Position numbers and translations under genes: made by a program
The notes under the pieces: generated by a model
Told to the model about the DNA's origin: nothing
Databases searched by the model: none
What the model saw: the letters and a program-made list of their open reading frames with translations, nothing else
Part shown: positions 27,934-46,585 of the stretch, in pieces
Numbering within the stretch: position 1 is the first letter of the stretch
How the letters are laid out: the number at the start of each line of letters is the position of its first letter
Assembly (NCBI GenBank): GCA_026168455.1
Contig: CM047427.1
Coordinates: 16,291,301-16,355,300 of the forward strand
Length of the DNA: 64,000 bases
DNA from: Theocolax elegans
Taxonomy: Eukaryota; Arthropoda; Insecta; Hymenoptera; Cerocephalidae
Direction: 5' to 3'

Positions 27934-27953
27934 ACTCCCCCCCTTTTTAAAAA
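27934..27953 (-). promoter_or_regulatory. Polypurine tract of the giant element
   Basis: On the minus strand AAAAAGGGGGGGAGT directly precedes the 3' LTR start TGTCGCGTCC. Plus-strand DNA synthesis would start here. Confidence 0.8.
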
Positions 27954-28902
27954 CGACGCCCTCGTCGTTAAACAATATTATTATTATATTATTATTTCTC
28001 TTGACATAAGATATCATACTTAATTTTAAATTATAAACATTATTTCGATTAATTTTTCTTTATTTCTTATGGTGAGCTTTATAAACCATATTACAATTAT
28101 TTCTTTCGTAGTTCAACTTCGTTTATTATTATTTTTCCTTACATCTATTACATTATTTCGAACCATTTAACAGTATTGATATAGTTCACCTATAAAAATA
28201 GAAGCTAAAAATAAAAAGGGTTTTATTATTACAATTTTTATTCTAGATATTCCGAAAAATTGTATAATTTTTATTAAATGTATTTTCTGTATATAAAGAA
28301 TTTATTCTTCTTTTGTTTTTACTCCTAATTTTTAGTATTCATCAATTCGTGTTAAATATATGTTATTTGTATTTTTTTTGTTCTCGTATCCATTTTTTTT
28401 ACAAAAGTTACAATTTTCTTTGATAATATTTGAATGCTTACGTATTTTTCTGAAATACAAATTAAGAGTTATCCATTAGTATATATATTTTTTTGCTTAG
28501 TCTATTAATAATTGCAGCGTAATGAACTATTATAACGAGATGGGAAAAAAAATTTTATTTTTATGCAATACAGACCCTCGCTTGAATGTAGACCTGCGTA
28601 GTAATCTTTCCTTAACGTAAGGTTAGTAGGAGCGAAGAAATATTTAATTTCCTCGCTCCCCCTCCCCCCCTCTGAAACGTAACGAAAACGTTGAATATAG
28701 CTATTCAAGGCTCTCGTTATGAGTTTTTTTTCTTTTTTTTTTTTCGGCTATTATAAACAAAGAATCACTTTGACTTATTTATTACTCTCAAGTACCCCTC
28801 CTAGTTCTGTCAATATTAAACGTTTTCGTTGGTCGCTTGAATTTTTCCAAGTGATCTTTTATACCCTAGTAAATTATTTTCCCTTAGTGCGATAAGGTTT
28901 CA

Positions 28903-28939
28903 TTTAAATACGGGTGGCTCCTTGCATTTTTTCGTCAGT
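28903..28939 (+). promoter_or_regulatory. Arthropod-type core promoter of the antisense gene
   Basis: TTTAAATA at 28903-28910 lies about 30 bases upstream of a TCAGT initiator at 28935-28939. It sits just ahead of the untranslated exon of the antisense gene. Confidence 0.5.
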
Positions 28940-29774
28940 ATACGTCAGGCAGTGATTCTATCCGTTTCTCCAAGGTGTCTCGTCCCTATTTTTTTACTAA
29001 GTAAGTGTTTTTATTGTTATTATTATTATCATCTCTTTTTGTTGCTTATTATTATTTTTTATTATTTTTTTGTTATAATAAGAAAAAAGAAAATAGTGTA
29101 TCTCTTATATAAGAGAATATTTATCTCTTTTTTTTCTTCTACGTATTTTATTTATTTTTTTTAAATAATAAAAAAAAATTTTGCTTTTGTCGTTAAGGTT
29201 TTATTATATATTTTTTTTGCATGTATGTTTTTATATTTTTTTCCCTAATGCTGAGTATGTATTTTTTTTCTATGTTTTCAGGATGGAGTTTGAAAAAGCA
29301 CGTTTGCTAATGCAGTGGGCTTTACGTCGACGGGATGATCGGGAATTTAGTCCCGATTTATTTGAAGCTCGGAGCTGGTTTCTAGCCGCTGCGCAGGAGT
29401 TGAATGCGTTGTGTATAAATGAAGGAGTCCCACTGGATGTGGACGCCCTTCTGCTCTTATTAAATTTATCCTTACGGGAACTTGCGGCCATATCGGAGTT
29501 GCCCGCGAGCTCCGAAGCTTCAGATTCCTTATTCTCGTCCGAGGGGGAAATGGGTGAGGAGGAGTTGGAGGCGATGGAGGAGGAGGAGGAGGAGGAGGAG
29601 GTGGAGGTGGTGGCACTGGAGGAAGATCTTTCGCCGAGATCACCCTTGCCAGAGCAGGTGCCTGACGTTCCGGCCTCATTTTACTGGCCGTCCGACCGGG
29701 GAGGATCTCCCTGCTATTCGCCAGTGCCGCGTATAATAAACATAATAGATATATCATCCGAGGATGAACTGTGA
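28937..29774 (+). CDS. Antisense spliced gene in the retroelement: acidic 163-aa protein with SUMO-interaction-like tail
   Basis: It is transcribed opposite to all other genes of the element. Exon 1 (about 28937-29000) is untranslated and ends at GTAAGTG; the acceptor is a long T tract ending TTTTCAG at 29281. The ATG lies at 29283 and the stop at 29772-29774. An AATAAA is present at about 29839. The product starts MEFEKARLLMQWALRRRDD, has a Leu-rich middle (VDALLLLLNLSLREL), a run of glutamates, a Pro/Ser section and ends with IINIIDISSEDEL. That tail is a hydrophobic core followed by Ser/acidic residues, as in SUMO-interacting motifs. I recognise no family. The low-complexity acidic part could mimic coding, but complete splice, start and poly(A) signals in one unit argue for a real gene. 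Antisense genes beside the 3' LTR are known in deltaretroviruses and HIV; any functional parallel is inference. Confidence 0.55.
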
Positions 29775-29913
29775 TAAGATGATCGGATTTGTCCTGTTTT
29801 TATTTTTCTTTTATTGTTACTAAAAAAATTTAATAGGGAATAAACTTGTTTGTAAAGTTCATAATAGAGTGTTTTAGTTTTCCCCTTTTTCATTCCATTC
29901 CTCATTCACCTGG

Positions 29914-44308: not shown

Positions 44309-46498
44309 TTATTTTCGCGGTGCGGAGGGGACGTTTGAGCGGGTTTCCGCGCTCGAAGTAGAGGGAATTTGATTCGTAGCCTCTCTCTCGACCCTCCTCG
44401 GAGAGAGAGTGTCGGTGTTTCCCTGATTTTGATTTCCTTCTCTTATTTCTTTTTGTAACTTATAACAATCGCGCTTTATGTGACCGGGTTTTCCGCAATG
44501 GAAACAAGTAACTGGTGATCTTATATTATTATTCGATTCTTTATTAATATATAGTGATTCTTGGGAAGTTGGATTAACCGGCTCGCGCACACCGCGAGTC
44601 CCGGAATTAATTCCCCGATCTTCTTTGTTAAATTGCTGCGACGAGTATTTATTATTATTATAACGAACAAAGGAATCATTTGTATCTCTGTCTCTATTTG
44701 GTAAAGATTCCGTCTGATTTTGATACTCATTCCAACCACCAAATTGTAAATTCGGTCTATTATAATTACGACTGTTATCCGAGCGATTTTGTGGGCTATA
44801 TGAACTGTTTATGGGATTGCGTCGGTTGTTATTATCGGAAAATCTTTCCGCAAAACTTCGTGCTAATTTGAAACAATTTATGGCTCCATGACCAGTCTTA
44901 GAACAATATTGACATACAATCGGAGAGTTATTAGAAATATAGTTTACTTTACGCGTTTCTTGAGTTGAACGAAAACGAGCCTCTTCTCGGCTCGGCGTCT
45001 CCTCGTCCAAGACGCTACAAGCGAACTCGCGCTCCACCTCGAGCGCTTGTTCACGAGCTTGTTTTATAGAACTTGGAGTCCCTAAACGCGCGCGAATTTC
45101 CCAACGAAGGCCTTTTAAAAAGAATTTTAAACAATCTCGCCTTAGCTCAAGCATGAAATGATCTGCTATCGCGACTCGTTCCTCTCTGTCGGCCGCTTTG
45201 ACTATTTCATTTTTTATTTCTTGTAACCGATTAAAATAAGCAACGACTGTCTCATTGTTTTTCTGTTTTAATTTAGCAAGTTCTCCCGTCCACTCGTAAT
45301 ATGTTTTTATCGATCCGAAGGTGTTTTCGAAAAAATCGGATATCTCTTTGATCGAATTAAAATTTTCTCCGCGCGCACAAGTTAAAGCTTCCCCATATAA
45401 ACGCATTCGAATAAGTTTTGTTAATTCTTTTTCGTACTCCGACGGTAAAATTTCTTTTACTTCGTTGCATCCGTCCAAAAATTGCGATAAATTTATATTA
45501 TGACCGTTAAACCGCGGTATTAAATCTAGAGCGTCCTTTAGCGATAAACCTCGAATTTGAGACGTCATTGTTTTATTATTAATTTGTTTTTTAACTTCAC
45601 TCCTATCTAGTTTTTTTGGTTTTGTTCCGGTGCTTGTTCTTAATTCGTCTAAATTAATTTTATTAAATAATTCGTCTTTAATCTTAGAAGAGTTTGCTTG
45701 TTCGGGTGATCTTTTAATTAATTGATTATCGAAGGGAATTGTAAAATCTGTCGCGCCTTGAATTAGTTTTTCGTCGAGTACTTTCGCCATGTCTGTCACT
45801 AGTGCCTTTGCTTCCTCAGTCTCTTTTTCGATCGGTGCGGAAAAAATATTTAACGCGCCTTTAATCTTACTTATGATACCTTGAAAAGTTGTCCCATTTT
45901 TTACACTTTCTTGTAAACTTTCTATGATTTTAGGTTCCTCGAGATAAGAATCTAACAACTCTTTTTTTACTTCAGTCGCGAGCCGTTTTCTTACCGAGCT
46001 TATAACGTTATCCGGTGTTAAAATCAATGGTTCATATGGACGATAAATTGGGGCTGGCGTACTAAAATTTACAGGATTATTCGCGATAAGTTCTTTTTGT
46101 TCCTCGTAATTCAAAACTGCGGGTTTTAAACTAAAATGTTTTACGCGCGTGGGAGTAATTATTGTGTCTTCCTGTTCGTCTTCACTAACTTCGGAAATAG
46201 AAAGATCAGTTGGAAAAAAAGGGTCTCTATATTCAAAATCGCGAGGTATTTTTATAGATAATGAAATATTTGCTGCACTTTTTTCTAGTCTATCCTTTAA
46301 ATAATTTATTTCTTTTGTCAAATTTTGCACTGTTTCCCTAGGAGTTTTAGTTAAATCGAGAGTATCGAGAGTCTGAACTTTTTCTTTGTATAAATTTAAT
46401 AACGTATCATTCATAGAAAATTCTAAACTCGTGTTTCTTTGTTTATTTACATAACAATCAGTATTTTTAGGCGAACCTGACATTTTACTTCTAAACAC
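44309..46498 (-). CDS. gag: Gag polyprotein, 729 aa
   Basis: It starts MFRSKMSGSPKNTDCYVNKQ. A long N-terminal matrix-like section is followed by a capsid-like helical region (about residues 310-500). Then come two CCHC zinc knuckles, CQYCSKTGHGAINC near 540 and CFHCGKPGHIKRDC near 670, with an Asn/Ser/Arg-rich spacer. This is longer than most errantivirus gags (about 450). The stop TAA (44309-44311) follows AAAA; slipping back one base on AAA enters the protease frame, the usual gag-pol -1 shift of this group. The frame is unbroken. Confidence 0.9.
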   Translation of the reverse strand: MFRSKMSGSPKNTDCYVNKQRNTSLEFSMNDTLLNLYKEKVQTLDTLDLTKTPRETVQNLTKEINYLKDRLEKSAANISLSIKIPRDFEYRDPFFPTDLSISEVSEDEQEDTIITPTRVKHFSLKPAVLNYEEQKELIANNPVNFSTPAPIYRPYEPLILTPDNVISSVRKRLATEVKKELLDSYLEEPKIIESLQESVKNGTTFQGIISKIKGALNIFSAPIEKETEEAKALVTDMAKVLDEKLIQGATDFTIPFDNQLIKRSPEQANSSKIKDELFNKINLDELRTSTGTKPKKLDRSEVKKQINNKTMTSQIRGLSLKDALDLIPRFNGHNINLSQFLDGCNEVKEILPSEYEKELTKLIRMRLYGEALTCARGENFNSIKEISDFFENTFGSIKTYYEWTGELAKLKQKNNETVVAYFNRLQEIKNEIVKAADREERVAIADHFMLELRRDCLKFFLKGLRWEIRARLGTPSSIKQAREQALEVEREFACSVLDEETPSREEARFRSTQETRKVNYISNNSPIVCQYCSKTGHGAINCFKLARSFAERFSDNNNRRNPINSSYSPQNRSDNSRNYNRPNLQFGGWNEYQNQTESLPNRDRDTNDSFVRYNNNKYSSQQFNKEDRGINSGTRGVREPVNPTSQESLYINKESNNNIRSPVTCFHCGKPGHIKRDCYKLQKEIREGNQNQGNTDTLSPRRVEREATNQIPSTSSAETRSNVPSAPRK

Positions 46499-46541
46499 AT
46501 TATTCCTTTAATCTCTTTTTTTTTCTCTCAAAAATGTGAGT

Positions 46542-46559
46542 TTCCCGGCCGATGCACCA
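46542..46559 (-). promoter_or_regulatory. Primer binding site, tRNA-Gly(GCC)
   Basis: TGGTGCATCGGCCGGGAA on the minus strand is complementary to CCA plus the 3' end of eukaryotic tRNA-Gly-GCC over 18 bases. It lies 26 bases from the LTR edge, inside of it. This is an uncommon primer for the gypsy group. Confidence 0.8.
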
Positions 46560-46585
46560 AATTTATTATAATAATTAATACAATC

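What the first reader, a model, noticed from the sequence alone, without database searches (positions are those of the whole stretch)
27934..46585. Retroelement with two unrelated envelope genes plus an IAP: a composite virus-like genome
The internal region holds complete Ty3/gypsy enzymes and then F-like env, chuvirus-like glycoprotein, two or three unknown accessory genes and a BIR+RING IAP. Known: errantiviruses carry F-like env, some insect LTR elements carry chuvirus-like glycoprotein, and baculoviruses carry IAPs. I know of no described lineage with all three. If real across copies, it would be a complex insect retrovirus with host-range and anti-apoptotic modules.
Basis: partly seen in the sequence, partly recalled or inferred. 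Interest (0 to 1): 0.95.

Follow-up and report, generated by a model that had tools for sequence, protein, structure and literature searches.

The report
Insect retroelement with two envelope genes
This stretch of an insect genome holds a copy of a large retrovirus-like element that, in many copies in the same genome, keeps two unrelated envelope genes and a cell-death inhibitor gene side by side.

Summary
The element is 26940-49824 (22,885 bp, minus strand), bounded by 994-bp LTRs 97.4% alike. It carries gag-pro-RT-RNaseH-IN, an orphan accessory gene, an F-like env, a chuvirus-type class III glycoprotein G (649.8 bits) and a BIR+RING IAP. Acc251 is in place, at least in part, in 15 of 16 copies chosen for a full env. 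Changes shared between copies are mostly synonymous in env, G and IAP, so these genes were probably under selection while the family spread. The window copy is broken; 'acc150' is only the N-terminal part of the IAP frame. A second family (contig C965) has G right after a related integrase, with no env or IAP found, suggesting that G came first. Ten paper searches found no such combination, but the most relevant paper (eLife 108449) was not held. The F assignment is the weakest link; the wasp host is inferred.

The parts
48831..49824 (-). 5' LTR (begins TGTCGCG on the minus strand)
   Evidence: 97.4% to the other LTR over 994 bp; K2P 0.027
46508..48830 (-). leader; includes 46579-47332, which other copies also carry (next to an LTR in L009)
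   Evidence: primer-binding site not identified
44309..46507 (-). gag frame (732 aa) with CCHC zinc knuckle
   Evidence: zf-CCHC 1.5e-6; Retrotrans_gag 1.1e-3, below its cut-off
42585..44459 (-). protease frame (624 aa), other frame than gag with a 151-nt overlap; ends in TAA here
   Evidence: RVP E 0.063, below cut-off
40683..42584 (-). RT and RNase H (633 aa), ends in TGA here
   Evidence: RVT_1 3.1e-31, RT_RNaseH 8.3e-32; best PDB chain 3.6e-80, then Ty3 Gag-Pol 8.7e-80
39396..40682 (-). integrase (428 aa), same frame as RT; RT and IN open together (746 aa) in L010
   Evidence: Integrase_H2C2 3.5e-23, rve 9.4e-8
38630..38859 (-). 73-bp tandem array, 3.2 units here and longer in L012
38171..38518 (-). 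ORF115, small basic ORF of unknown function
   Evidence: seen in 2 of 6 upstream pieces
37056..37811 (-). acc251, orphan accessory ORF with CxxC pairs
   Evidence: no homologue at E <= 0.001 among 340 word-sharing candidates of 5.8e9 proteins; in place in 15 of 16 further copies, 236 aa open in 8 of 16
34885..36728 (-). F-like env, in two frames here (36728-36120 and 36123-34885); one frame of 570 aa or more without stop in 18 of 30 matches that cover the whole query; C-terminal TM; no R-X-K/R-R site found
   Evidence: (recounted)
32829..34901 (-). chuvirus-type class III glycoprotein G; TAG at 33126-33128 and no start codon before the signal peptide in this copy
   Evidence: PF24664 649.8 and 51.7 bits; fold search; 8 of 23 top matches have a stop-free 690-aa frame; start codon at residue 30 in 7 of 7 other copies read
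31408..32766 (-). IAP: N-terminal region (32766-32314), BIR, RING; three pieces here, one 449-aa frame in many other copies
   Evidence: BIR 1.7e-14 and RING 2.9e-10; BIR 4.7e-26 in the L007 frame; 19 listed rows with a stop-free 449-aa frame
29172..29774 (+). antisense acidic ORF (200 codons open) in the 3' region; status uncertain
   Evidence: 1 of 5000 local shuffles reaches it; the DNA is found, at least in part, in 6 of 6 downstream pieces; frame conservation not tested
27934..27975 (-). purine-rich tract abutting the 3' LTR
   Evidence: similar in 4 of 4 other copies read
26940..27933 (-). 3' LTR

Best explanation
It is one decayed copy of a high-copy, recently mobile Ty3/gypsy-type LTR retroelement that built up a virus-like gene set. 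SHOWN: LTR-to-LTR anatomy; gag-pro-RT-RH-IN; then acc251, F-like env, class III G and IAP in fixed order in many copies; an excess of synonymous changes shared among copies in env, G and IAP; in-frame stops in the window copy no more than neutral decay since insertion would give. INFERRED: G is the ancestral entry protein of this pol lineage, since a sister family has G directly after IN; env, acc251 and IAP were added later. G is probably made from a spliced RNA (an acceptor-like site ends right before its start codon; no chance control was run), env likewise by analogy with known insect elements. G is probably the fusogen. The F-like protein, in which no furin-type site was found, probably serves in attachment or as an auxiliary, as group I baculovirus F-like proteins do beside GP64. 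The BIR-RING protein probably holds off caspases in cells where the element is active, so that they live long enough to pass on new copies.
For: LTR pair. Domains. G relatives: 199 proteins at E <= 0.001, 120 listed; the named ones among those 120 are hymenopteran. Tree: window G in a 9-row clade (100/100) with Trichomalopsis and Trichogramma brassicae. G model finds chuvirus G and herpes gB. Copies: 83 G, at least 152 IAP-piece and 109 env matches. Order: IAP 1257-1395 nt downstream in 23 of the 23 top G matches; env upstream in 23 of 23, identical spacing in 21. Acc251 in 15 of 16. Shared changes S:N env 7:1, G 14:2, IAP parts 8:4, acc251 7:7; binomial P by sites 8e-5, 4e-8, 4e-4, 0.012; with a synonymous chance of 0.30 the first three give 0.0013, 3e-6, 0.0095. 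Nonsense changes expected since insertion 5.7-6.8, seen 3. Family B: RT 48-53%, IN 46%, then G 44%, no BIR or RING in 8 sense frames downstream.
Against: No transcript, protein, particle or infection data. The F assignment rests on PDB chains labelled only 'fusion protein' and fails in Pfam and in phmmer with one copy. Acc251 selection is weak (7:7) and its function unknown. TSD and primer-binding site not found. 'G first' rests on one sister locus that could have lost env and IAP. The shared-versus-singleton count ignores the copies' tree; singletons also lean synonymous (80:106 against about 1:4 sites), so they are no neutral control; acc150 and IAPN were counted in the window copy's frames, which run off-frame near their ends and overlap by 95 nt. 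One older G match of similar coverage (C7, 87%) shows no BIR or RING in the 4 kb read. Two of six upstream pieces hold none of IN, ORF115 or acc251. G has the smallest A-skew of the modules (0.133).
Confidence: 0.85

Rival explanations
1. An ordinary env-bearing gypsy element into which G, IAP and accessory sequences fell by separate later insertions at this one locus.
For: The window copy alone cannot exclude short-TSD insertions; family B lacks env and IAP.
Against: 23 of the 23 top G matches share the order and near-constant spacing; no bracketing repeats; acc251 in 15 of 16.
Confidence: 0.03
2. The modules were captured once, but env and/or IAP are passengers without function, merely copied with the element.
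For: Acc251 has 7:7 shared changes; the IAPN part alone 3:3; many copies are broken.
Against: Env 7:1 and G 14:2 shared changes, IAP parts together 8:4; env open over 570 aa in 18 of 30 full-coverage matches and 449-aa IAP frames in 19 listed rows.
Confidence: 0.12
3. The upstream envelope is not an F relative but another, unplaced glycoprotein.
For: No Pfam match at E 10; no hit for the L007 copy alone; single-sequence model uninformative.
Against: phmmer 5.3e-9 and profile 1.2e-7 to the same chains over about 235 residues; signal-peptide-like start (by eye) and C-terminal TM.
Confidence: 0.15
4. A non-retroviral virus (chuvirus-like or DNA virus) integrated next to a gypsy element and the pair was amplified by segmental duplication.
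For: G is of chuvirus type.
Against: Modules lie between the LTRs on the element's strand; 3' LTR in place in 4 of 6 downstream pieces; copies on many contigs and both strands; no other chuvirus gene was recognised among the frames scanned.
Confidence: 0.02

Closest known systems
Insect errantiviruses / iERVs (Metaviridae with env-F)
   Same: Ty3/gypsy-type pol, LTRs, gag and pro in different overlapping frames, an F-like env downstream of pol (passages of PMC12992720; the rest recalled)
   Different: Second, unrelated class III envelope, IAP and acc251; gag has a CCHC knuckle; no furin-type site found, a motif that PMC12992720 lists as conserved in iERV Env
Anakin, a BEL/Pao element with chuvirus glycoprotein in mosquitoes (PMC7642597, passages)
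   Same: LTR element with a captured chuvirus G
   Different: Pol here is Ty3/gypsy-type; 'two envelope' and 'apoptosis' occur 0 times in that paper
Jingchuvirales glycoprotein EVEs beside gypsy fragments in Hymenoptera (PMC10084718, abstract and results) and Mono-Chu glycoprotein EVEs in ants (PMC6540820, passages)
   Same: Same kind of G and host order; gypsy fragments flank them
   Different: PMC10084718 reports two complete elements only (Bemisia, unclassified; Anopheles, Anakin); here G sits in a full LTR element with env and IAP
Group I alphabaculoviruses with GP64 plus F-like protein (PMC4864199, passages)
   Same: A second fusogen beside an F-like protein without furin site
   Different: DNA virus; a parallel in arrangement, not a relative
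Baculovirus and insect IAPs (recalled; PDB hits)
   Same: BIR plus C-terminal RING
   Different: Encoded by a retroelement; long N-terminal region without Pfam match above cut-off; no relative at E <= 0.001 among 348 candidates

Membership tests
Ty3/gypsy LTR retroelement (Metaviridae) | LTR pair with gag, protease, RT-RNaseH, IN in that order | tested here: met
   Ty3 among the best PDB matches of RT; gag and protease domain scores are below cut-off, the zinc knuckle is above
Ty3/gypsy LTR retroelement (Metaviridae) | short target duplication and tRNA primer-binding site | tested here: inconclusive
   no shared 5-7 bp flank found and PBS not assigned; one LTR edge lies in an AT microsatellite
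Errantivirus | RT in the errantivirus clade | not tested
Errantivirus | F-type env with furin site | tested here: not met
   F-like match but no R-X-K/R-R in the window pieces or in the env frames of L002 and L007 as far as read
Errantivirus | F-type env with fusion peptide | not tested
   none
Chuvirus-type (Monjiviricetes) glycoprotein | PF24664 above cut-off over most of the profile, class III fold | tested here: met
   649.8 bits, profile 6-564 of 653, tail 566-627; Foldseek E-values strong but TM-scores low
IAP | BIR above cut-off plus RING | tested here: met
IAP | caspase inhibition | not testable with these tools
   needs an assay
Infectious retrovirus | enveloped particles that enter cells | not testable with these tools
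   none
Anakin (BEL/Pao with chuvirus G) | BEL/Pao pol | tested here: inconclusive
   best PDB matches of RT are Ty3, but no BEL/Pao reference was compared

The most novel reading that the evidence does not exclude
A complex insect retrovirus lineage, recently spreading in one (probably chalcidoid wasp) genome, in which a chuvirus class III fusogen is the ancestral envelope and a second, F-like glycoprotein without furin site, an orphan regulator and an anti-apoptotic IAP were added and kept by selection: a retroelement counterpart of the GP64-plus-F arrangement of group I baculoviruses.
Probability: 0.5. Interest if true: 0.9.

Novelty: new variant of a known kind. Interest (0 to 1): 0.8.

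Why it matters
Complex retroviruses with accessory genes are known mainly from vertebrates (recalled). A gypsy-type element that keeps two unrelated envelopes and an IAP under selection would show a similar build-up in insects, would offer a vehicle for the many chuvirus-like glycoproteins in hymenopteran genomes, and comes with datable copies and a simpler sister family with which the order of gene capture can be tested.

Tried and rejected
Led nowhere: IMG/VR scans with G, RT, a G alignment, IN, IAP and env and a GTDB scan found no relative. Protein searches with acc251 and the IAP N-terminal piece gave nothing at E <= 0.001; for the IAP that may reflect the word filter as much as novelty. 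The single-sequence model of the env C-terminal piece (pLDDT 37.8) is useless and was not searched. NCBIfam, Rfam and ARAGORN gave nothing bearing on the element. P0117 joins RNase H to G in a bee gene model, but that RNase H is 41% alike and lies after G, so it is no proof of order.

Considered and rejected: 46579-47332 as a nested insertion; acc150 as a separate gene; a coding overlap of env and G, since the stop-to-stop frames overlap but G's start codon lies about 70 nt after the env stop; an F-like env wholly free of selection.

Limits and dropped rows: listings are lower bounds and one search was cut. One search used the first 23 of 83 G rows by score and 41 IAP rows picked from the listing; the same G rows and 23 env rows. 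I left out row 25 (C7, 87%, 571 residues), which shows env but no BIR or RING in the pieces read. One search counted the first 25 env rows (17 open); recounting, 30 rows cover residues 1-404 and 18 are open over 570 aa without stop. One search used 4-8 copies a module, for env 5 of the 7 other copies. Upstream pieces L009-L014: acc251 4 of 6, IN 3 of 6, ORF115 2 of 6; L009 and L014 none of these; L009 has an LTR and leader close upstream of G, so deletion derivatives exist. The TAA between protease and RT was not looked up in other copies.

Papers: PMC10084718 (abstract and results section), PMC12440569 (abstract, passages), PMC7642597, PMC6540820, PMC13172572, PMC12992720, PMC4864199, PMC3124438, PMC6338049 (passages only), PMC9613689 (search listing only). 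Ten searches (one search was on baculovirus F only) listed no element with F-like env, chuvirus G and IAP together. eLife 108449 was not held, so 'not in print' is unproven.
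Full report
ANATOMY. Self-comparison finds one long direct repeat bounding the region: 26940-27933 and 48831-49824, 97.4% over 994 bp, K2P 0.027, or 21 differences in 934 sites outside the first 60 columns. On the minus strand the 3' LTR begins TGTCGCG after a purine tract; 4 of 4 other copies read show a similar junction. No TSD of 5-7 bp was found and no primer site was assigned; the other LTR edge lies in an AT repeat.

GENES. In order on the minus strand: gag (CCHC), protease frame with a 151-nt overlap in another frame, RT-RNase H, IN; a 73-bp array; ORF115; acc251; env; G; IAP. 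RT is closest to Ty3 among solved structures. G scores 649.8 bits to the Monjiviricetes fusion family. Its model (pLDDT 70.3, pTM 0.44) finds chuvirus-type glycoproteins first in the viral library and herpesvirus gB first in the PDB, with strong E-values but low TM-scores (query-normalised 0.16-0.36 in the rows shown), so I rest on the sequence match. BIR and RING both pass Pfam cut-offs.

THE F-LIKE ENV. The C-terminal piece matches PDB chains 9w4c and 9w4d, named only 'fusion protein', at 5.3e-9; that these are baculovirus F is my inference. A profile of three copies gives 1.2e-7. A 98%-identical copy alone gives no hit and Pfam none. I hold an F relationship likely but not settled. No R-X-K/R-R site occurs in the window pieces or in the env frames of L002 and L007 as far as read. 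PMC4864199 (passages) describes group I baculovirus F-like proteins that lost the furin site and fusion function while GP64 took over; the arrangement here is a parallel, not a test.

OTHER COPIES. The window's genome answered three searches. G: 83 matches; of the 23 top-scoring (window included), 8 have a stop-free 690-aa frame. IAP C-terminal piece: at least 152 matches, 19 listed rows with a stop-free 449-aa frame. Env: 109 matches; of 30 rows covering residues 1-404, 18 are open over 570 aa or more without a stop (recounted). The 23 G matches all have IAP downstream on the same strand at 1257-1395 nt and env upstream, 21 with identical spacing. Read directly, 7 of 7 other copies (L002-L008) have G, its tail, and the IAP N-terminal and BIR stretches, and env wholly or in part; env is one frame (504 aa within the piece) in 2 of 7, the IAP frame is open over 381 aa or more in 5 of 7. 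Of six downstream pieces RING is in 6 and the 3' LTR in place in 4; of six upstream pieces acc251 is in 4, IN in 3, ORF115 in 2. Of 16 more copies chosen for a full env, 15 have acc251 at least in part, 8 with 236 aa open. In 7 of 7 other copies G has a start codon at residue 30; the window copy lacks it; an acceptor-like site ends just before that place in 8 of 8 (no chance control).

SELECTION AND DECAY. Counting changes carried by two or more copies, S:N is env 7:1, G 14:2, G tail 2:2, acc150 4:1, IAPN 3:3, RING 1:0, IN 2:0 and acc251 7:7 in 20 copies (3:4 in the five copies). Pooled shared 36:13 against singletons 80:106 gives Fisher P 0.0002. Singletons also lean synonymous, so they are not a neutral control; acc150 and IAPN were counted in the window copy's frames, partly off-frame at their ends. 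Sense-strand A-richness runs through all modules while flanks are near symmetric; of 1000 flank windows 0 to 63 reach a given module's skew, G being the weakest. In the window copy 5.7-6.8 nonsense changes are expected since insertion and 3 in-frame stops are seen, plus frame changes in env and IAP and a missing G start: ordinary decay. Intact frames exist elsewhere; the RT-IN stop is absent from L010, the protease-RT stop was not looked up.

SISTER FAMILY. Contig C965 carries gag (34%), protease (27-28%), RT (48-53%) and IN (46%) relatives and then G (44%, frame 649 aa), about 230 bp between the IN and G matches. No env, acc251 or IAP match at E 1e-3 was found in the 6 kb upstream and 4 kb downstream read, and 8 sense frames downstream hold no BIR or RING. 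I infer that gypsy-plus-G is the older state. Loss at that locus cannot be excluded, and its LTRs were not sought. Older copies of the window's family (G 70-87%) keep the neighbours in part: C5 and C1107 have env and IAP stretches, C2 IAP but nothing in its upstream piece, C7 acc251 and env but no BIR or RING.

HOST. The named G relatives among the 120 listed are hymenopteran (ants, bees, wasps). Window G groups with Trichomalopsis and, on a long branch flagged as unsure, Trichogramma brassicae, 100/100; but Trichogramma kaykai falls in the other half of the tree with ants and bees. A chalcidoid wasp host is therefore only an inference, and G could have moved between hosts. The abstract of PMC9613689 (seen in a listing) reports large Anastatus genomes with recent LTR bursts, which would fit but is no test.

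PRIOR WORK. In print: gypsy elements with F-type env (PMC12992720), BEL/Pao with chuvirus G (PMC7642597), gypsy fragments beside hymenopteran chuvirus G (PMC10084718), type III glycoproteins in mosquito gypsy (PMC13172572) and many Mono-Chu glycoproteins in ants (PMC6540820). IAP-like sequence in a repeat is reported from shrimp, in a WSSV-related repeat (PMC3124438, passages). The combination was not found in ten searches, one paper of weight not being held.

VERDICT. A real, conserved, recently mobile composite element: a new variant of the env-bearing gypsy kind. The functions of env, acc251 and IAP are inferred.

Noticed in passing
29172-29774 (+): Antisense acidic ORF in the element's 3' region, 200 codons open, 1 of 5000 local shuffles reaches it; the DNA is kept at least in part in 6 of 6 downstream pieces, frame conservation not tested.
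   Followed up: partly
L009 (G000:C4:44782864-44786864): LTR and leader lie close upstream of G: probably an internally deleted derivative without gag, pol and acc251 that keeps part of env, G and IAP.
   Followed up: partly
38630-38859; L012: 73-bp tandem array between IN and ORF115, 3.2 units here and many more in L012; role unknown.
   Followed up: partly
43014-43283 (-): Three 90-bp (30-aa) in-frame repeats within the protease frame.
   Followed up: no
1567-2033 and 8884-9167: Two fragments matching neighbouring parts of the element's leader, perhaps one old copy split by a long insertion.
   Followed up: no
22926-23357 (-): WD40 fragment matching the C-terminal part of LST8 (4.3e-46), perhaps a host exon or a retrocopy.
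   Followed up: partly
13595-14170 (-): Transposase fragment with HTH domains (HTH_23, HTH_Tnp_Tc3_2).
   Followed up: partly
58367-60238 (+): 623-aa ORF without Pfam match; a neighbour at 51678-52304 weakly matches DUF1258 and the Plavaka transposase.
   Followed up: partly
23683-25639: Tandemly repeated DNA, copies about 351 bp apart, left of the element.
   Followed up: no
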